Shown piece by piece: positions 47-30,972 of a stretch of DNA of 38,517 nt (the first letter of the stretch is position 1; each line of letters starts with the position of its first letter). Source of the DNA: Limosilactobacillus sp. (lineage in GTDB: Bacteria > Bacillota > Bacilli > Lactobacillales > Lactobacillaceae); contig JAUMUE010000014.1 of assembly GCA_030530845.1 (NCBI GenBank), positions 1-38,517 on the forward strand, read 5' to 3'. The notes under the pieces were generated by a model that was given only the letters and a program-made list of their open reading frames with translations, had not been told where the DNA came from and made no database searches. The position numbers and the translations under genes are program-made.

Positions 47-1636
47 GTGATAAATAAGCAAAAATTAGGACAACTGGTGGAGCAATACAAGCGGGTTTTT
101 GACGAGCGCTGGGCGAGTGAAGGATTCAAGTGGGATGCCGTGGCGACCTTCCAACGCAACTGGGATGTCGATGCGACTGACTTTGAAGGAATGCTGGAAA
201 AGGCGCTTGAAGATGCTAATAAGTTGTTGATCGGACGATACTTCATGCCGGGCGATATGATTAATATCTTTGCCCAACATTATCCTGAACAAGTACGTGC
301 AATGTTCCGTGGACTATTTGACGAAAAGCAGGACCTGATTGAACGATTAGCCGAGTTCAAGAATCAAGCCGAGAACTTACTGGTTGATTTTGCCAAACAG
401 GATCCGAAAGCCAAAAGTACTTACCAAAACGAAGGAACGATGATGACCTACTTGTGGCTGAAGTATCCTAGCAAGTATTTCTTCTACCGTTACGGACAAT
501 CCAAGCACGTCGCAGATATTCTGGAATCCGATTACCAATTCAAACCGGGCAAATATGATTTGGACATCAACAACGCTCTGTCACTTGATAATGAAATCGC
601 TGAATTCTTGCGCCAGGACCCTGAGTTAAGAACAATGCTGGCTGATAAGCTCGGCGCGAATTCATATACAGACGAAAACATGCACGTCTTAACGAGTGAC
701 TTTGTATTCTTCCTCCAACATGATTTGAACGAAGCTGATGAGCCAGAAGTCACGGAAGAGGAAATTTTAGAACCAGTAAAGATTGCTTCTTATACCAAGT
801 CCGACTTTCTTGATGAGGTCTACATCAGTGCGGATAAGTTTGACCGGATGCAAAACGTCTTGAAACACAAGAAAAACATTATTTTGCAGGGAGCACCGGG
901 TGTTGGGAAGACTTTTGCGGCGAAGCGTTTAGCCTATGCGATGATGGGTGAACAGGATGATGACCGGATTGCCTCCGTCCAATTTCACCAAAACTACTCG
1001 TACGAGGACTTCATGATGGGATACAAGCCGACCGGGGATGGGTTCGCACTCAAGACCGGTGTGTTCTACGATTTCTGCAAGAAGGCAGCCGCGGATCCTG
1101 AACGTGACTACTTCTTTATCATCGACGAAATCAACCGTGGTAACCTCAGTAAGATCTTCGGAGAACTGTTGATGCTAATTGAATCCAACTACCGCGAAAA
1201 GCCAATCACGCTGGCCTACAATGGTGAGGAATTCACGATCCCATCACGCCTTTACATTATCGGAATGATGAACACTGCAGACCGGAGCCTGGCAATGATC
1301 GATTACGCACTTCGCCGCCGGTTTAGTTTCATCAGCATGGAGCCCGCCTTTGATAATCCACGGTTTGTTGCGTATGAAAAAACGCTGCAGAGCGCAACAC
1401 TGGACCGTTTGATCGACGTGATTAAGAGTCTGAATAACGATATCAGAAGTGACAAGACCCTCGGCAGTGGATTCTGCATCGGACACAGCTATTTCTGTCA
1501 ACTGGATCCCGCTGACGACCTGACACTGAAAAATATCGTCGACTACGACATCATCCCGATGCTAGAAGAATATTGGTTTGACGACGAAGAAAAGGTGAGA
1601 GAGTGGGCTGACCAACTCCACGGTGTCTTTGCATGA
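47..1636 (+). CDS. mcrB: McrB-like AAA+ GTPase subunit of a type IV modification-dependent restriction system
   Basis: This is the motor subunit of a McrBC-type enzyme, which translocates on DNA carrying modified bases and drives the McrC nuclease. The AAA+ core is clear: Walker A GAPGVGKT at residues 282-289, Walker B DEINRGN at about 360-366, and the McrB-family signature MNTADRS at 408-414. The first 250 or so residues look like a variable target-recognition region that I do not recognise as a named domain, so the modified base it reads cannot be inferred. The start is GTG, preceded by a GAGGGTGAG ribosome binding site. The stop codon overlaps the ancestral mcrC start (ATGA at 1633-1636), so the two genes were translationally coupled. 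The gene itself looks intact at 529 aa. Its partner is damaged, so the system may be inactive. Confidence 0.9.
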   Translation: MINKQKLGQLVEQYKRVFDERWASEGFKWDAVATFQRNWDVDATDFEGMLEKALEDANKLLIGRYFMPGDMINIFAQHYPEQVRAMFRGLFDEKQDLIERLAEFKNQAENLLVDFAKQDPKAKSTYQNEGTMMTYLWLKYPSKYFFYRYGQSKHVADILESDYQFKPGKYDLDINNALSLDNEIAEFLRQDPELRTMLADKLGANSYTDENMHVLTSDFVFFLQHDLNEADEPEVTEEEILEPVKIASYTKSDFLDEVYISADKFDRMQNVLKHKKNIILQGAPGVGKTFAAKRLAYAMMGEQDDDRIASVQFHQNYSYEDFMMGYKPTGDGFALKTGVFYDFCKKAAADPERDYFFIIDEINRGNLSKIFGELLMLIESNYREKPITLAYNGEEFTIPSRLYIIGMMNTADRSLAMIDYALRRRFSFISMEPAFDNPRFVAYEKTLQSATLDRLIDVIKSLNNDIRSDKTLGSGFCIGHSYFCQLDPADDLTLKNIVDYDIIPMLEEYWFDDEEKVREWADQLHGVFA

Positions 1637-1695
1637 AAGATAAATCGATCCTGATCAAAAACGTCTATTACATGCTGTCGTACGCGTTTTCGGGC
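1633..1695 (+). pseudogene. mcrC: Displaced N-terminal fragment of mcrC (frameshifted)
   Basis: The ATG overlaps the mcrB stop and opens a frame reading IKNVYYMLSYAF, which is the usual beginning of McrC proteins. After the TTTT run at 1687-1690 the frame loses all resemblance to McrC and stops at 1821. From about 1689 the McrC sequence continues in the -1 frame (FGLKQGVYEDVATE and onward). Restoring one T to the run would fuse the two parts into a single protein of about 354 aa. This is seen in the sequence. Whether it is a real mutation or a sequencing indel cannot be told from here. Confidence 0.75.
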
Positions 1696-1718
1696 TCAAG
1701 CAGGGTGTCTACGAAGAT

Positions 1719-2696
1719 GTGGCGACCGAGTCATTCGACCAGATGTACGACCTCTTCGCAGCAATCATGGCCAAGGGGATCAGTGCGCAACTCAAGAGGG
1801 GATTATACCGTGAATACCTGAGTCGCCAAGATGATCTGACTGTGTTGCGGGGCAAAATCGACATGCCAAAGACAATCAAGCACCGCCTGTCACAAAAGCA
1901 AGTCCTGTCTTGTGACTACGATGAACTGTCTGAAAATAACCTGCTCAATCAGATCCTGAAGACGACGATGATGAGCCTGCTGAAGAATCGCCGGGTAAGC
2001 TTGAAATACCGGGTACAACTGAAGAAGCAACTTCTGTATTTCAACGGCATCGACTTGATCGACCTGGCGCGGATCAACTGGACAGGGATCAAATACCACC
2101 GCAACAACCAGAGCTACCGACTGCTGATCTGCATCTGCCAGCTGGTGATGCAGGGTGAAGTGATGGCGGGTGATCCGGGCAACTCCCTGTTAGCCAGCTT
2201 TTCCGATGAGCAAGGGATGCACCACCTCTACGAAAAATTCATCCTCGAGTACTACCGCCGTCACTACCCACAGCTGACGGTCAATGCATCCCGGATTGAC
2301 TGGGCGACCGATGATGGTGACGACCAGTTCCTATTGCCCAACATGCGCACCGATGTCCACTTGGCGCTGGGTGACCGGATTTTAATCATTGATGCTAAGT
2401 ACTACGAGCACACGACGGCTGTTTGGTACACGAACCGCGCAATCAAATCTGGCAACCTCTACCAGATTTTCACCTACGTCAAAAACGAGTCCTACAACTA
2501 TCCGGACAAGACGGTGGCGGGGATGCTTTTGTATGCGAAGACTGACGAGCGGGTGCAACCGGACGAAAATTATCACATCCACGGAAACCAGATCAATGCC
2601 AAGACGCTCGATCTGAACCGCCCATTCAAGCAAATCTCAGCCCAACTCGATGAAATCGTCAACGCATATTTCACTAACCTGCAGAAAAATGTCTGA
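1719..2696 (+). CDS. mcrC: McrC-like nuclease subunit, main reading frame (N-terminus split off by frameshift)
   Basis: McrC supplies the nuclease of McrBC and stimulates McrB GTP hydrolysis. This 325-codon frame carries nearly all of the protein. A PD-(D/E)XK-type centre is visible as D212, followed 13 residues later by D225-A-K227 in LIIDAKYY. The first in-frame start codon is a GTG with no good ribosome binding site. The real N-terminal residues sit upstream in another frame (1633-1695). The C-terminal 300 residues show no stops or further shifts, which argues for a recent lesion or an assembly error rather than long decay. If it is not translated by reinitiation, the McrBC system is null. 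Confidence 0.75.
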   Translation: MATESFDQMYDLFAAIMAKGISAQLKRGLYREYLSRQDDLTVLRGKIDMPKTIKHRLSQKQVLSCDYDELSENNLLNQILKTTMMSLLKNRRVSLKYRVQLKKQLLYFNGIDLIDLARINWTGIKYHRNNQSYRLLICICQLVMQGEVMAGDPGNSLLASFSDEQGMHHLYEKFILEYYRRHYPQLTVNASRIDWATDDGDDQFLLPNMRTDVHLALGDRILIIDAKYYEHTTAVWYTNRAIKSGNLYQIFTYVKNESYNYPDKTVAGMLLYAKTDERVQPDENYHIHGNQINAKTLDLNRPFKQISAQLDEIVNAYFTNLQKNV

Positions 2697-8047: not shown

Positions 8048-9070
8048 GTGGTAGAAAAGAAACCAGGGATTATGTCTGACCAATCCCAAGACGAAACCGA
8101 AGAGCAACTTGAGCTGACCCTTCGCCCACAGACCCTTAAAGAATATATTGGTCAGGAACAAATCAAGGGTAAGCTGAACGTCTATATTCAAGCTGCCAAG
8201 GGGCGGGAAGAAGCGCTCGACCACGTGCTCTTGTATGGACCTCCTGGCTTAGGTAAGACGACCTTGGCGATGGTGATTGCTAACGAAATGCAGGTTAACA
8301 TCAAGACTACCAGTGGTCCGGCAATCGAAAAGCCCGGTGACCTGGTGGCATTGCTGAACGAACTGCAACCCGGCGATGTTCTTTTCATCGATGAAATTCA
8401 CCGCCTGCCTAAGATGGTCGAAGAAATGCTCTACTCCGCGATGGAAGACTTCTACATCGATATCGTTGTCGGTGAGGGGCCAACTGCACACCCAGTCCAC
8501 TTCCCACTGCCTCCATTCACGTTGATTGGGGCAACGACGCGTGCGGGGATGCTCTCTGCACCATTGCGTGACCGCTTTGGGATTGTCGAACACATGAACT
8601 ATTACAACCGTGAAGAACTCAAGAAGATCATCTTCCGTTCTGCCAAAATTTTCGGTACCACAATCGAAGAAGAAGGGGCGTTGGAGTTGGCATTGCGTTC
8701 ACGCGGTACTCCACGGATCGCCAACCGTCTACTCAAGCGGGTGCGTGACTTCGCCCAAGTCGCAGAAAAGGGCAGCATCGATCCTGCCACCGTTAAGCAA
8801 GCACTCGACTTACTCCAAGTTGACAGCAACGGTTTAGACGAGGTCGACCGCAAGATGCTGATGACGATGATCAACTTTTACCACGGTGGACCAGTTGGAT
8901 TGAAGACGATCGCCGCCAATATCGGTGAAGAAACCAACACGATCGAGGAAATGTACGAACCATACCTGATCCAGATTGGCTTCATTGCACGGACTCCCCG
9001 CGGACGGGTTGTGACACCTGCCGCATACGAGCACCTCGGCGTTCCGTACCCAAGTGATGAGGGAAAATAA
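8048..9070 (+). CDS. ruvB: Holliday junction branch migration DNA helicase RuvB
   Basis: RuvB is the hexameric AAA+ motor that pulls DNA through the RuvA-bound junction. Walker A GPPGLGKT is at 64-71, Walker B FIDEIH at 113-118, sensor and arginine-finger regions follow ([18 protein letters not shown]), and a C-terminal winged helix ends with RTPRGRVVT. The 340-aa length is normal. The start is GTG at 8048, seven nt after a G-rich ribosome binding site. An overlapping ATG at 8046 is in another frame and stops at once. The following gene starts immediately after the stop codon. Confidence 0.97.
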
Positions 9071-10129
9071 ATGCAAGCACAATTCAAATTAATGGCACAC
9101 TCCGCAAACGCCCGGTCTGGGAAACTTTTGATAAATAACAAAGAGTTGACCACCCCAGCCGTAGTGTTCACGGGAGTCAATACCACAATGCTGACAAATC
9201 AAGAGTTGCAGTCACTCGGCACCGTTGCCATTAAGCAGTCTGCACTGCGATACTGGCTCAACGGTAGTGATGTCTTTGGTGATCTCCACGACCGCTTGAA
9301 CTGGGCTGGATGGATCATCGGTGATCCCGGATGCGAACAGGCTTACCGCTGGGCAAAACCTCGTGGCCGTAAGAAGGACGGCGTGAGTTTTCACGAGCCA
9401 GAATCTGGCCAGCAAAAGCTCTACAAGCCTGAAGATGCGCGGGGATGGCAAGACAAACTCGGCTGTGACCTGCAGACTGGTTTTTGGCGCTGGGAAGACT
9501 ATTATTCACCCGTCGACGACCTGCAAGCATCCGCAAAACACACCGCATCATGGACGACTGAGAAGGGAGACAACACACTCCTGCCAATCGTCGGCGGTGG
9601 CTTAAAGCGGGTCCGCCAAGCCAGTGCTGAGACAGCAATCAAGCAATCTCCACTGGGCTATGCGATCGCCGGAGTGGATACCGAGGTCAAGTTAGCTGAA
9701 CAAGTCCGCTTGGTTAAAGAAGTGGTGGGGATGTTGCCAGAAGACGGACTCCGCTACCTGCCAACGAGTGGTTCGATTGAGCACGTCTTGATGGCGATGA
9801 TTAATGGGGTTGACCTGGTTGATTCCGACTGCGCTGATGAAGCTGCCCAGCATGGCGTGGCTTTCGATGGCACCAAGCGGATTCACCTGGCAAAGGAACA
9901 CTTCCTTGAAGATTCCGCAATCCTGGTTGATGGTTGTCAGTGTCCAACTTGTCGTAGCGGTTATTCACGTTCATACTTGCACCAACTCCAGAGCGATCAC
10001 AGCCCACTCGCGAATCGCTTGTTGGCAAGCCACAACCTGTATGTACTGAACCGTCTTGTGGCCGATTTACAAGACGCCATCGCAGGCAATCGGGTCGATG
10101 AATTCGTGAAACAACATGCGCTTGGCTAG
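9071..10129 (+). CDS. Divergent tRNA-guanine transglycosylase (Tgt)-like protein with an altered active site
   Basis: Canonical Tgt exchanges G34 of certain tRNAs for a queuosine precursor. This 352-aa protein has the Tgt outline: TPAVVFTGVNTTML near the start, GYAIAG at 196-201, the zinc site C289-X-C291-X2-C294 with H321, and HNLYVLNRL. The base-binding pocket is not Tgt-like. DSGGFQ is replaced by DPGCEQ (85-90), the Asp of the FDEC motif aligns with W139, VQGG is now VGGG (174-177), and the DCVLPTR block is DSDCADE (251-257). Both catalytic aspartates could still be D85 and D251. It occupies the usual queA-tgt position between ruvB and yajC, with queA absent. The ATG follows the ruvB stop directly. 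It may be an enzyme with another substrate or a non-catalytic relic. There is no frame damage, so selection appears to hold it. Confidence 0.75.
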   Translation: MQAQFKLMAHSANARSGKLLINNKELTTPAVVFTGVNTTMLTNQELQSLGTVAIKQSALRYWLNGSDVFGDLHDRLNWAGWIIGDPGCEQAYRWAKPRGRKKDGVSFHEPESGQQKLYKPEDARGWQDKLGCDLQTGFWRWEDYYSPVDDLQASAKHTASWTTEKGDNTLLPIVGGGLKRVRQASAETAIKQSPLGYAIAGVDTEVKLAEQVRLVKEVVGMLPEDGLRYLPTSGSIEHVLMAMINGVDLVDSDCADEAAQHGVAFDGTKRIHLAKEHFLEDSAILVDGCQCPTCRSGYSRSYLHQLQSDHSPLANRLLASHNLYVLNRLVADLQDAIAGNRVDEFVKQHALG

Positions 10130-10196: not shown

Positions 10197-10598
10197 GTGA
10201 ATACTTTAAGTTTCTTTACTCTTGGTGCCGCTAACGCAAACGGTGGTTACCAAGGTATCATTTTGATTGTTTTAATGATTGCTTTGATGTACTTCTTCAT
10301 GATTCGTCCACAACAAAAGCAACGTAAGCAACACCAAGACATGATGAGCAAGCTTCACAAGGGTGATGAAGTTGTTACTATCGGTCGTCTCCACGGTGTT
10401 ATTTACTCCATCAACGAAAGCGACAAGACCGTTGTCCTCGACTGCGATGGTATCTACCTCGAATTCGATATGGTTGCAATTGCTCGTGTCGTAAATCGTG
10501 CTGAAGATGACAAGCAAGAAGCACCAAAGGAAGAAGCAAAATCAGAAGAAAAACCAGCTGAAAATGATGAAGAATCTGCTTCTGATGACGCTAAATAA
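10197..10598 (+). CDS. yajC: Preprotein translocase accessory subunit YajC
   Basis: YajC is a small Sec-translocon membrane partner that associates with SecDF. The 133-aa protein has one transmembrane helix at about residues 20-37, followed by the family motif IRPQQKQRKQ, a compact cytosolic domain (GDEVVTIGRLHGVI) and a long acidic Glu/Asp tail of about 30 residues. The start is GTG, about 11 nt after AAAGGA. A nearby ATG at 10190 is in a different frame. It follows the Tgt-like gene by 67 nt, the same place yajC takes after tgt in many bacteria. A terminator closes the unit. Confidence 0.93.
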   Translation: MNTLSFFTLGAANANGGYQGIILIVLMIALMYFFMIRPQQKQRKQHQDMMSKLHKGDEVVTIGRLHGVIYSINESDKTVVLDCDGIYLEFDMVAIARVVNRAEDDKQEAPKEEAKSEEKPAENDEESASDDAK

Positions 10599-27264: not shown

Positions 27265-28086
27265 TTGACAACTCGTAGTGAAATGAATCAAGGAGTAAAA
27301 GCAACACCAAAGAAGAAACGCCACATTCCGGTTGATATCATCATCGGAATCGTGCTGATGTTTCTCTTCATGTCGACTTTCATTTTGAACCAAACAATTT
27401 TTAATACTAAGTTTGTCACTAACGAAATCACGTCTTCAAATGTTGAATCATCATTCCTGAAGGCTGCCAACCCGGACTTGGGTGATGGCATCTCCACTGA
27501 TTCACTGATGACTAAGAGTGAAGCAAACATGGTTTTTGGCAAGTTGGTTGAAGAAGCATTCGCCGGTGAAAAACTGACCGTTGATCTGACTACGCCAATT
27601 GAAAATGCGATGTCAGAAGGAGCAAGTAATAGTGATTCAACTGGTTTTGCCAGCGCAATTGTTTCAACTTTCTCCGGTGCAATCGCCAAGGAAGTTAACT
27701 CCAAGATTAACTCTGAGATCAACACCCCAGAAGTGACAAAGTTGGTTAAGAACCTTCACACTGCTAAGATGGCCAGCAACGGCATCATGATCGGATGTGG
27801 AATTGCACTTTTGATCATGATCGTTCTTTCCTTGATTGGTAAGTATTTCTTGGCTGTCTTTAGTTGGGTAACCACGATTTCTTGGTTATTGACCTTTGGA
27901 TTTGTTTACATAATCAAAGGAATTTTGCCAAATCTCGTGAAAGACTACCCCGACTACAGCTCATTGATGGCTCAGGTTTCCACTGATTTTTATTCCAAAT
28001 CTTGGACCTGGTTATTGATCTTCGGTGCGGTCGCAATCGTACTGTGGATCTTACGCTTCATCCGCTCCCGAGTATCTTCTCGATAG
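27265..28086 (+). CDS. Unrecognised four-helix membrane protein downstream of ccpA
   Basis: I do not recognise this 273-aa protein. It has a basic cytosolic N-terminus (KATPKKKRH), a first transmembrane helix at about 23-42, an extracytoplasmic region of about 125 residues rich in Ser, Asn, Asp and Glu, and three further helices at about 170-192, about 195-217 and about 248-264. The C-terminus is basic (RFIRSRVSSR). No cysteines, catalytic motif or transporter signature stand out in the outer region. The start is TTG, eight nt after AGGAG, which overlaps the ccpA stop. With no terminator between them, co-transcription with ccpA is likely. Confidence 0.75.
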   Translation: MTTRSEMNQGVKATPKKKRHIPVDIIIGIVLMFLFMSTFILNQTIFNTKFVTNEITSSNVESSFLKAANPDLGDGISTDSLMTKSEANMVFGKLVEEAFAGEKLTVDLTTPIENAMSEGASNSDSTGFASAIVSTFSGAIAKEVNSKINSEINTPEVTKLVKNLHTAKMASNGIMIGCGIALLIMIVLSLIGKYFLAVFSWVTTISWLLTFGFVYIIKGILPNLVKDYPDYSSLMAQVSTDFYSKSWTWLLIFGAVAIVLWILRFIRSRVSSR

Positions 28087-28955: not shown

Positions 28956-28990
28956 ACCCCTTTGCCGTATTTAAAAGCAAGGGGGTTTTT
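28956..28990 (+). promoter_or_regulatory. Leader hairpin overlapping the comGA ribosome binding site
   Basis: ACCCCTTTGC (28956-28965) pairs with GCAAGGGGGT (28977-28986) as 10 consecutive pairs with one U-G wobble, around an 11-nt loop, followed by TTTT. The 3' arm contains AAGGGGG, the comGA ribosome binding site. It could act as an attenuator, a translational lock, or both. Confidence 0.6.
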
Positions 28991-28994
28991 GAGT

Positions 28995-29972
28995 ATGAAG
29001 AGTTTTGAAAAAGAAATTGCCGTGGCGATTGGAAGACGCGCGGCAGACCTCTATATCTTGCCATACCAGAATTATTACCGGCTTTTGATGACCTGTGTAG
29101 GCAAGCTGGAAGTAATTAAGAAGGTGTCACCAGATTATGGCCAACGCCTAATTTCCTTTTTGAAATACCAGGCAGATATGGCAGTCAGTGAACACCGCCG
29201 TCCACAACTGGGTGCGATGGAGTGGCAACATGGATCGGAAATCATCAATTTACGTCTTTCGAGCGTCGGTGATTACCAAGGTCGCGAATCACTCGTGGTG
29301 CGTTTTATCTACCACCTCAGTGACGCCAACTACCAGCTTTTGGCGCCTGATCAATGGAATACGCTGACTAACCTGCTCAAACAACGTGGTCTGATTCTAT
29401 TTGCTGGTCCAATGGGTTCCGGGAAGACCACGACGATGTACCAACTCGCACGGACATTGGCAGAGAAACAGGTTGTGATGACGATTGAAGATCCGGTCGA
29501 AATCAACGAGCCGTCTTTCGTGCAGTTGCAGGTTAACGAACGGGCGGGGATGGATTATCAACAACTCTTGCGGCTCGGTCTGCGTCACCGTCCGGATGTC
29601 TTTATTATTGGAGAAATCCGGGATCCGGAGACTGCTAAGATGACGGTCCGTGCTGCTTTAAGTGGACACCTGGTATTAGGAACAGTCCACGCCAAAAACG
29701 CAAATGGTGTAATTGCCCGGTTGGAACAGCTTGGCGTCACACCTTCATTTTTACAACAAACGCTGACGGGAATTTTTTACCAGCGACTATTACCAACTAC
29801 TGACGGCAAGCAGGCAATCTTGTTTGATGACGTGATCGCAAGTGACCTCGACAAGGCGCTCACAGACCAGGGTGAAAGGGGGATGACAGATGGATGGAGG
29901 ACAAAGCTTGAAGAGGCAGCCACAGCCGGTCTCATTACGGACGCGGTTAAAGAAGAATTTTACCAAGGATAA
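28995..29972 (+). CDS. comGA: Competence pseudopilus assembly ATPase ComGA
   Basis: ComGA is the hexameric secretion ATPase that powers the competence pseudopilus for DNA uptake. Walker A is GPMGSGKTTT (138-147), the Asp box lies near TIEDPVEI, and the Walker B region is IIGEIRDPETA (G206-E207), followed by GHLVLGTVHAKNA. The start is the ATG at 28995, nine nt after AAGGGGG. An earlier in-frame start at 28962 lies inside the leader hairpin. The protein is 325 aa, about 30 residues shorter than the Bacillus form. It is the first of seven overlapping com genes, and comGB starts 83 nt before its end. Confidence 0.95.
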   Translation: MKSFEKEIAVAIGRRAADLYILPYQNYYRLLMTCVGKLEVIKKVSPDYGQRLISFLKYQADMAVSEHRRPQLGAMEWQHGSEIINLRLSSVGDYQGRESLVVRFIYHLSDANYQLLAPDQWNTLTNLLKQRGLILFAGPMGSGKTTTMYQLARTLAEKQVVMTIEDPVEINEPSFVQLQVNERAGMDYQQLLRLGLRHRPDVFIIGEIRDPETAKMTVRAALSGHLVLGTVHAKNANGVIARLEQLGVTPSFLQQTLTGIFYQRLLPTTDGKQAILFDDVIASDLDKALTDQGERGMTDGWRTKLEEAATAGLITDAVKEEFYQG

Positions 29973-30972
29973 CTTCAACCTCGCTGCCCAAGCTAAGTGG
30001 TTCTTATTGATCAGTGACTTACTGAAGGTCGGTTTTTCACTCCAACACGCGCTGTCATTTACGATGGTCGTGATGAAGAAGAACCAGAGGACGCTGTCGG
30101 CGATTAATGACAACCTGGCGACGGGGATGACCTTTGCGGAGAGTGTCAAAGACTACATCAATACCGACCTGTACTACCAGTTAATGCTGGCAGAAAAACA
30201 CGGGGAGTTGATCGACACCCTTGACGAAATCGGGACACTCTTGGTTACCAAGCAAAAACAACGGCGGAAGTTGCAACAGCTATTGCAGTACCCGCTGATC
30301 CTCCTATTTTTGCTGGGGCTGTTAGTTGTCGGATTGAGCGCCTATGTTTTTCCAGAACTATCAACCTGGCAAAACGGCGACCAGGGTCCATCGCTTTTTA
30401 CGTTGATCAAGCAATGGTTCCCGCTCGTGGCTTCTGGGATCGCAATGTCGTTGACGAGCTCAGGCATTGTCCTGGCAATCCGCTGGAAAAAATCAGACGC
30501 ACAATCACGGGTGCAGTGGCTCTGTGGCTTGCCAATATTAGGGAAGTGTTATCAGCTTTACTACGGTTACTATGTCACGAGCACGATTGCGACGATGCTG
30601 CAGTCGGGGATGTCGTTGAAAGAAATTTTAGCCGTGGTCGAATTCTTCTCAGAGAAGTCCTTGTTAAATTCACTGGGGCAATCTCTGCAACAGAAGGTTT
30701 CACGTGGCGGCGATATCCAAGATGTGATCAAGAGTAAGTCATATTTACCCGACGAGCTTTCGATCCTGGTCAATAAGGGGTCAACGATGGCGGAGCTCGG
30801 GGATGACATGGCAGTGATGGCTAAGCTGCAATTCAAACGGCTAATCGAACAACTCGAGGGACTGCTCTCACTCGTTCAACCAATCATCTTTGTCGTTATC
30901 GCGCTTGTCATCGTCTTTCTCTACTTGAGTATTCTGCTACCAATCTATCATTCAGTTCAGGGGGCTTACTAA
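29890..30972 (+). CDS. comGB: Competence pseudopilus platform protein ComGB
   Basis: ComGB is the polytopic inner-membrane platform (GspF family) of the pseudopilus. Two GspF-like repeats are seen: WFLLISDLLKVGFSLQHAL with GELIDTLDEIGTLL, and YYVTSTIATMLQSGMSLKEIL with STMAELGDDMAVMAKLQF. Membrane helices are at about 139-160, about 178-198 and near the C-terminus (about 327-352). The start is the ATG at 29890, eight nt after GAAAGGGGG. This overlaps comGA by 83 nt in another frame. The conserved N-terminal repeat begins at about residue 33 (nt 29986), so some overlap is required by the protein family. The length is 360 aa. Confidence 0.92.
   Translation: MDGGQSLKRQPQPVSLRTRLKKNFTKDNFNLAAQAKWFLLISDLLKVGFSLQHALSFTMVVMKKNQRTLSAINDNLATGMTFAESVKDYINTDLYYQLMLAEKHGELIDTLDEIGTLLVTKQKQRRKLQQLLQYPLILLFLLGLLVVGLSAYVFPELSTWQNGDQGPSLFTLIKQWFPLVASGIAMSLTSSGIVLAIRWKKSDAQSRVQWLCGLPILGKCYQLYYGYYVTSTIATMLQSGMSLKEILAVVEFFSEKSLLNSLGQSLQQKVSRGGDIQDVIKSKSYLPDELSILVNKGSTMAELGDDMAVMAKLQFKRLIEQLEGLLSLVQPIIFVVIALVIVFLYLSILLPIYHSVQGAY

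What the first reader, a model, noticed from the sequence alone, without database searches (positions are those of the whole stretch)
9071..10129. Intact Tgt-like protein with a rebuilt base-recognition pocket in the queA-tgt locus
The protein keeps the Tgt length, the CXCXXC...H zinc site and both candidate catalytic aspartates (D85, D251). It has lost the residues that recognise the queuosine precursor: DSGGFQ becomes DPGCEQ, the FDEC Asp aligns with Trp139, VQGG becomes VGGG, and DCVLPTR becomes DSDCADE. queA, normally beside it, is absent. The reading frame is undamaged and sits in a tight operon directly behind ruvB. This points to an altered substrate, a tRNA-binding role without exchange, or slow decay after loss of the queuosine pathway. 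The motif differences are seen in the sequence. The alignment is by eye.
Basis: partly seen in the sequence, partly recalled or inferred. Interest (0 to 1): 0.7.

Follow-up and report, generated by a model that had tools for sequence, protein, structure and literature searches.

The report
Repurposed tRNA-modifying enzyme in Limosilactobacillus
A whole genus of gut and food bacteria appears to have lost the queuosine tRNA modification but keeps the gene for its key enzyme, altered so that it probably no longer swaps tRNA bases, which suggests the protein was recycled for another, still unknown job.

Summary
The ORF at 9071-10129 is intact and a true Tgt homologue (PF01702 E 9e-57; model TM 0.90 to solved Tgt). 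It scores half the functional-Tgt cutoff (157.5 of 306.75 bits) and is the only Tgt found in the genome.

The trait is genus-wide (Limosilactobacillus): a divergent Tgt sits between ruvB and yajC, frame open, in 46 of 50 genomes; one genome has cleanly lost it, three cannot be judged. queA, QueT and QueG: 0 of 50.

Decay is rejected: dN/dS median 0.17 over 39 close pairs. Exchange chemistry is not what is conserved: 0 of 46 keep all four key residues; the nucleophile is lost in 21 of 46. Shared instead are a PVDD motif beside the old active site (42 of 46) and a basic loop where E. coli Tgt contacts the tRNA anticodon loop.

Best reading: a Tgt-derived, mostly non-catalytic protein kept by selection, perhaps RNA-binding (inferred only). 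An altered-substrate enzyme in the nucleophile-keeping sub-clade, this genome included, is not excluded.

The parts
9071..10129 (+). Tgt-derived protein (Tgt fold, 352 aa), only Tgt homologue found in the genome
9323..9325 (+). D85, aligned with general acid/base Asp (E. coli D89, Z. mobilis D102); Asp in 16 of 46 genus members
9350..9382 (+). basic loop W94-AKPRGRKKD-G104, covering the E. coli loop L98-I104 that stacks on tRNA A37; the stretch aligned with E. coli 97-107 has net charge +1 to +6 in 46 members against -2 to +1 in 30 canonical Tgts
   Evidence: role of the loop from PMC13416341 (passages)
9485..9490 (+). W139 in place of the base-binding Asp; R140 in place of the canonical Glu (R 24, Q 21, A 1 of 46)
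9500..9523 (+). genus motif YYSPVDDL (residues 144-151), N-cap of the helix after barrel strand 4
   Evidence: [YF][ASGT]P[VI]DD[LI] in 42 of 46 members and 0 of 30 canonical; a DNA pattern for it in 3 of 5 genus genomes and 0 of 390 other Lactobacillales genomes
9590..9604 (+). V174-GGGL: Gln of VQGG lost, G175 and G177 present in 46 of 46
9821..9826 (+). D251 (nucleophile position, E. coli D264; Asp in 25 of 46) and S252 (Ser 35 or Thr 11 of 46; Cys in 30 of 30 canonical)
9935..10033 (+). zinc ligands C289, C291, C294, H321 (all four present in 35 of 46)
8048..9070 (+). ruvB, directly upstream (0 nt gap)
10197..10598 (+). yajC, directly downstream; ruvB-[queA]-tgt-yajC is taken as the inherited order

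Best explanation
The gene is the direct descendant, in place, of the ancestral tgt of the ruvB-queA-tgt-yajC locus. In the ancestor of Limosilactobacillus the queuosine pathway was lost, but tgt was kept and diverged into a new family that has stopped doing preQ1/queuine exchange. Shown here: homology, fold, position, absence of the tested Q genes, purifying selection, turnover of the catalytic and base-binding residues, and a conserved genus-specific motif beside the old active site. Inferred: the protein works as a non-catalytic (pseudoenzyme) binding protein. It would hold an RNA, most likely a tRNA anticodon arm, through the basic loop AKPRGxKK/VKKN and the PVDD edge of the barrel, in the way eukaryotic QTRT2 is thought to support tRNA without catalysis. 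It would act by chaperoning, shielding or sensing that RNA.
For: Present with open frame in 46 of 50 genus genomes, in each between ruvB and yajC. Of the four others, one has ruvB and yajC adjacent with no gene between, one contig ends after ruvB, and two assemblies gave no RuvB match beyond distant ATPases. queA 0/50, QueT 0/50, QueG 0/50, QPTR over cutoff 0/50 (one sub-cutoff match); the control genomes rang in 9, 1, 9 and 9 of 14. dN/dS median 0.17, range 0.10-0.29, in 39 pairs with 0.05<dS<1.5; ruvB 0.017. The 22 active-site columns have mean entropy 0.02 bits in canonical Tgts but 2.32 bits in 30 genus representatives, no lower than other columns (2.16) and slightly higher than canonical-invariant columns outside the site (2.04). 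D89+D143+Q187+D264 together: 0 of 46, against 30 of 30 canonical. P147 45/46, D149 46/46, D150 43/46, V148 42/46, K96 44/46. The loop has the largest charge gain of 365 windows, z 3.3. QTRT2 precedent: PMC6165067 (passages).
Against: RNA binding was not tested. The anticodon-reading arginines (E. coli R270, R273; role recalled) are mostly lost, and so are the E. coli stem contacts K285, K292 and R320, although canonical Lactobacillaceae also lack K285 and K292. Whole-protein charge is near neutral (median -1; this protein -6). The loop was noticed before the window scan was run. The nucleophile Asp is present in all 25 genomes of the sub-clade that holds this window, which is unexpected if chemistry no longer matters there. 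Three early-branching genomes (G130, G215, G301) have the basic loop but not PVDD. Eleven of 46 have lost the zinc site. One lineage has lost the gene, so it is not essential.
Confidence: 0.55

Rival explanations
1. Altered-substrate enzyme: in the sub-clade that keeps D251, the protein still forms a covalent intermediate through the nucleophile but exchanges a different base, acts on a different RNA or DNA, or simply cleaves it.
For: D251 is Asp in all 25 genomes of two neighbouring branches of the ruvB tree; both Asp are kept in 16 of 46; the fold, zinc site and barrel are intact here; the conserved motif lies on the catalytic face of the barrel (from the model's strand and helix order).
Against: The partner Asp (D85) is replaced by Ala (8) or Thr (1) in 9 of those 25. 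The base-binding position is D 13, A 10, N 1, W 1 there, so there is no common new pocket. Of the other 21 genomes, 18 share the PVDD-type motif and all 21 a net positive loop, without the nucleophile. The 25 were picked by having the Asp, so its invariance is only as strong as their grouping in a weakly supported backbone.
Confidence: 0.22
2. Slow decay of a useless gene after loss of the Q pathway.
For: The protein evolves about ten times faster than ruvB by dN/dS; catalytic and zinc residues are being lost; one genome has deleted it.
Against: dN/dS 0.10-0.29 in 39 of 39 pairs; 46 of 46 frames open; a neutral simulation keeps the frame open in 0.014 of 2000 runs at 0.1 changes per site and in 0 of 2000 at 0.25; invariant residues persist although the 28 relatives in A1 are only 20-59% identical to this protein.
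Confidence: 0.08
3. A queuine- or preQ1-salvaging Tgt with an unusual pocket.
For: Some bacteria have tgt alone and salvage queuine or insert preQ1 (PMC11570991, PMC11130926; passages).
Against: Here 0 of 46 keep all four catalytic and base-binding residues. No QueT and no over-cutoff QPTR in 50 genomes, though unknown transporters are possible. The GG[LS][AS]G site reported for queuine users is in 0 of 46.
Confidence: 0.05
4. A partner subunit or scaffold for another protein of the cell (for example RuvB or a nuclease), unrelated to RNA.
For: Co-transcription with ruvB is likely from the spacing; the motif could be a protein interface.
Against: The gene order is inherited from canonical tgt, so it says nothing about partners; no other evidence.
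Confidence: 0.1

Closest known systems
Bacterial tRNA-guanine(34) transglycosylase Tgt (E. coli, Z. mobilis)
   Same: Fold (TM 0.90), length, zinc site, gene position between ruvB and yajC
   Different: 24-29% identity; base-binding Asp and Gln lost here; catalytic pair not conserved in the family; tested Q genes absent; new motif and basic loop
Eukaryotic QTRT2 (non-catalytic Tgt subunit)
   Same: Tgt fold with the nucleophile and acid/base residues replaced in many members, zinc site usually kept; a precedent for non-catalytic use
   Different: QTRT2 works with the catalytic partner QTRT1; here no second Tgt was found in the genome; presumably arisen independently in a bacterial genus
Tgt-only bacteria (Chlamydia trachomatis, Bartonella henselae)
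   Same: tgt without queA and queG (QueH not searched here)
   Different: Those enzymes insert queuine or preQ1; here the base-binding residues are lost
DpdA (phage and bacterial DNA 7-deazaguanine transglycosylase)
   Same: Tgt superfamily with other substrate (recalled)
   Different: No PHROG or PADLOC match; no dpd genes recognised among the neighbours that I scanned

Membership tests
Functional bacterial Tgt (TIGR00430 equivalog) | Score over the curated cutoff (306.75 bits) | tested here: not met
   157.5 bits
Functional bacterial Tgt (TIGR00430 equivalog) | Catalytic Asp pair (E. coli D89, D264) | tested here: inconclusive
   Both present in this protein; together in 16 of 46 family members
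Functional bacterial Tgt (TIGR00430 equivalog) | Base-binding Asp143 and Gln187 | tested here: not met
   W139 and V174 here; D 13 of 46, Q 7 of 46 in the genus
Functional bacterial Tgt (TIGR00430 equivalog) | Base exchange at G34 of GUN tRNAs | not testable with these tools
   needs tRNA analysis or enzyme assay
Tgt superfamily (TIGR00449, PF01702, Tgt fold) | Curated cutoff and fold | tested here: met
   163.4 bits over 47.6; 193 over 26.3; Foldseek TM 0.90, E 1.9e-28 to 4dy1
QTRT2-type non-catalytic partner | A second, catalytic Tgt subunit in the same cell | tested here: not met
   Single PF01702 match in G000 and in each of the 46 matching genomes; assemblies are not all complete
Pseudoenzyme | Loss of catalytic residues under maintained purifying selection | tested here: inconclusive
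   Met for the genus as a whole; in this window's sub-clade the nucleophile remains
DpdA | Match to DpdA profiles | tested here: inconclusive
   0 PHROG and 0 PADLOC matches, but I did not confirm that these libraries hold a DpdA model

The most novel reading that the evidence does not exclude
A core tRNA-modifying enzyme was recycled, in place and across a whole genus, into a dedicated RNA-binding (or differently acting) protein after its pathway was lost. Limosilactobacillus would then carry a bacterial Tgt pseudoenzyme that works alone, with its own PVDD motif and basic anticodon-loop grip.
Probability: 0.4. Interest if true: 0.72.

Novelty: new variant of a known kind. Interest (0 to 1): 0.58.

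Why it matters
Pathway surveys commonly read a TGT family hit as evidence that a bacterium makes or salvages queuosine. One survey calls bTGT the signature enzyme of the pathway, inferred the Q proteins from InterPro annotations, and describes oral lactobacilli as relying on imported Q precursors (PMC11130926, passages; the text seen does not name Limosilactobacillus). For Limosilactobacillus such an inference is likely wrong. The genus also offers a natural series, from proteins with both catalytic Asp to short forms without nucleophile or zinc site, in which to watch an enzyme become something else. L. reuteri is a tractable, harmless host in which to delete and pull down the protein.

Tried and rejected
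Decay was tested by dN/dS and a neutral frame simulation and rejected for the genus. A second canonical tgt in the genome was sought and not found. A more diverged copy in genomes without a match was sought with the A1 profile: 0 of 4 genus genomes and 0 of 19 Tgt-less genomes of other genera (19 of the 65 that one search left without a match outside the genus); the 5 Tgt-positive controls rang. Phage or mobile origin: the motif in viral contigs gave 9 stretches, none encoding a relative; no PHROG match. Genome-contig scan: 2 short hits, neither in an ORF that I could recognise as Tgt by eye, so not used; their rows played no part in any count. RNA families in the window: none at gathering threshold. 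Stop codons flagged in 5 of 46 matches lie at the ends of the frames: at the natural 3' end in G262, G335, G327 and G331, and just before the start codon in G306; my extracted ORFs hold no internal stop in 46 of 46. The genus name rests on an L. oris record with a chromosomal fragment that matches genome G077 at 99% over 1197 bases; two further name searches found nothing.

Papers: search listings (20 of 93 listed); passages only of PMC11130926, PMC11570991, PMC3660597, PMC6165067 and PMC13416341. Judged by the listed titles and abstract starts, none describes a divergent or non-catalytic Tgt in Limosilactobacillus or Lactobacillus.

Full report
WHAT IS THERE. The ORF at 9071-10129 is 352 aa and starts on the base after the ruvB stop. 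It is a Tgt homologue by Pfam (193 bits, cutoff 26.3) and by the superfamily model TIGR00449 (163 bits, cutoff 47.6), but it scores half the cutoff of the functional Tgt model TIGR00430 (157.5 against 306.75 bits). It is the only PF01702 match in the 1.42 Mb genome (47 contigs, 95.9% complete). The AlphaFold2 model (pLDDT 85, pTM 0.87) matches solved Tgt structures best (top hit TM 0.90, rmsd 2.5 A, 24% identity). The six other rows of that alignment were Tgts from viral contigs, which favours a Tgt-like model.

Aligned with 30 canonical Lactobacillaceae Tgts and E. coli Tgt, D85 and D251 fall on the acid/base and nucleophile aspartates. W139 replaces the base-binding Asp, the Gln of VQGG is lost, and CVxPTR is replaced by SDCADE. 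The zinc ligands are present. Roles: nucleophile D264 from PMC13416341 and Z. mobilis D102/D280 from PMC6165067 (passages); the roles of D143, Q187, R270 and R273 are recalled.

A GENUS TRAIT. Of 301 genomes of the family, 235 match PF01702. In the window's own genus the best E-values in that call run from 1e-12 to 1e-86. In the other genera they are 1e-142 or better, apart from two genomes with two matches each (G166 1e-115, G295 1e-83), which I did not follow up. Within the genus, 46 of 50 genomes match, one copy each. In all 46 the ORF lies next to ruvB with yajC on its other side and is open (283-394 aa). Of the other four, G247 has ruvB followed by the yajC ORF after 87 nt with no gene between; G319's contig ends after ruvB; G308 and G315 gave no RuvB match beyond distant ATPases. 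So 46 of 47 informative loci keep the gene. The genus is Limosilactobacillus: an L. oris record that looks like a chromosomal fragment matches genome G077 at 99% over 1197 bases and this genome at 79%. In Latilactobacillus curvatus the order is ruvA-ruvB-queA-GNAT-tgt-yajC, so the divergent gene sits at the tgt position with queA gone.

NO Q PATHWAY. QueA 0 of 50, QueT 0 of 50, QueG 0 of 50; QPTR has one sub-cutoff match in 50. QueT rang in only 1 of 14 controls (Lactococcus lactis), the others in 9. QueH, QueDECF, QueK and QueL were not searched.

SELECTION. NG86 dN/dS for the 39 pairs with RuvB identity over 90% and 0.05<dS<1.5 has median 0.17 (0.10-0.29), against 0.017 for ruvB. Pairs are not independent. 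This genome has no relative close enough for a dS estimate. For it the evidence is the open frame after long divergence (ruvB end branch 0.52) and a neutral simulation in which 0 of 2000 frames stay open at 0.25 changes per site. The protein is conserved, but its dN/dS is about ten times that of RuvB.

WHAT IS NOT CONSERVED. Asp at E. coli D89: 16 of 46; at D143: 13 of 46; Gln at Q187: 7 of 46; Asp at D264: 25 of 46. No member has all four, against 30 of 30 canonical. Twenty-two active-site columns have mean entropy 0.02 bits in canonical Tgts and 2.32 in 30 genus representatives, no lower than the other columns (2.16) and slightly higher than canonical-invariant columns elsewhere (2.04, P 0.04). 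Some site columns stay conserved (G188, C265 as S/T, E144 as R/Q). On the ruvB tree the D264 state needs at least two changes and D89 at least three; the backbone is weakly supported.

WHAT IS CONSERVED. Y144 44/46, P147 45/46, V148 42/46, D149 46/46 and D150 43/46, at the start of the helix after barrel strand 4. The strict motif Y[YF][AS]PVDD[LI] is in 36 of 46 and the loose form [YF][ASGT]P[VI]DD[LI] in 42 of 46; both are in 0 of 30 canonical proteins. The four without it are G335 (a YYDPVDDL variant) and the early branch G130, G215 and G301. G175 and G177 46/46, K96 44/46, R or Q at 140 45/46, Ser or Thr at 252 46/46, R213 and N322 46/46. The glycines, D149, E210 and N322 are shared with canonical Tgt; P147, V148, D150, R/Q140 and S/T252 are new. 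A DNA pattern for the motif hits 3 of 5 genus genomes and 0 of 390 others in the order; the two misses carry variants (HYAPVDDI, YYTPVDDL).

THE BASIC LOOP. The stretch aligned with E. coli residues 97-107 has net charge +4 (range +1 to +6) in the 46, against -1 (range -2 to +1) in 30 canonical proteins. It is the largest gain among 365 windows (z 3.3). I noticed the loop before scanning, and windows overlap. In E. coli Tgt the loop L98-I104 orders on tRNA binding and stacks on A37 (PMC13416341, passages). This is the main hint of RNA binding, and it is an inference. Against it: the anticodon arginines are mostly gone, and whole-protein charge is near neutral (-6 for this protein).

MECHANISM. 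Most likely, loss of the Q pathway removed the need for base exchange, while a second property of the protein, binding of an RNA, was or became useful. Selection then kept the fold, strengthened a basic grip and fixed the PVDD edge, and let the pocket drift. The alternative is that the sub-clade with an invariant nucleophile (25 genomes, this one included) still does chemistry on another substrate. D85 is replaced in 9 of those 25, which argues against the standard two-aspartate reaction there.

NOVELTY. A non-catalytic Tgt is known as QTRT2 in eukaryotes, so the kind is known. A stand-alone bacterial case covering a genus did not appear in the listings; the library lacks most subscription papers, and one search listed 20 of 93.

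Noticed in passing
window 47-2696: Two ORFs upstream of mutS: 47-1636 (weak PADLOC matches, best a type II restriction enzyme model) and McrC (1719-2696, PF10117, E 1.4e-36), so probably an McrBC-type restriction system next to mutS-mutL-ruvAB.
   Followed up: partly
window 27265-28086: 273-aa ORF between a LacI-type regulator and the comG-like genes with no Pfam match.
   Followed up: no
window 28962-30972: comGA/comGB-like genes (T2SSE, T2SSF).
   Followed up: no
L097 (CP014789.1): The 13.6 kb 'plasmid' of L. oris J-1 carries comGC and ackA, and its ackA lies at 99% identity on contig C1 of genome G077 and at 79% on this window's contig; it looks like a chromosomal fragment deposited as a plasmid.
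   Followed up: partly
66 of 301 genomes of the family: Eight of 40 sampled genera show no Tgt at all: repeated complete loss in the family, next to the retained altered gene of Limosilactobacillus.
   Followed up: partly
L074, L075, L076, L077, L078: Short forms (283-322 aa) that have lost the zinc site and much of the N-terminal region, yet keep (A/G)PVDD(L/I) and GxG.
   Followed up: partly
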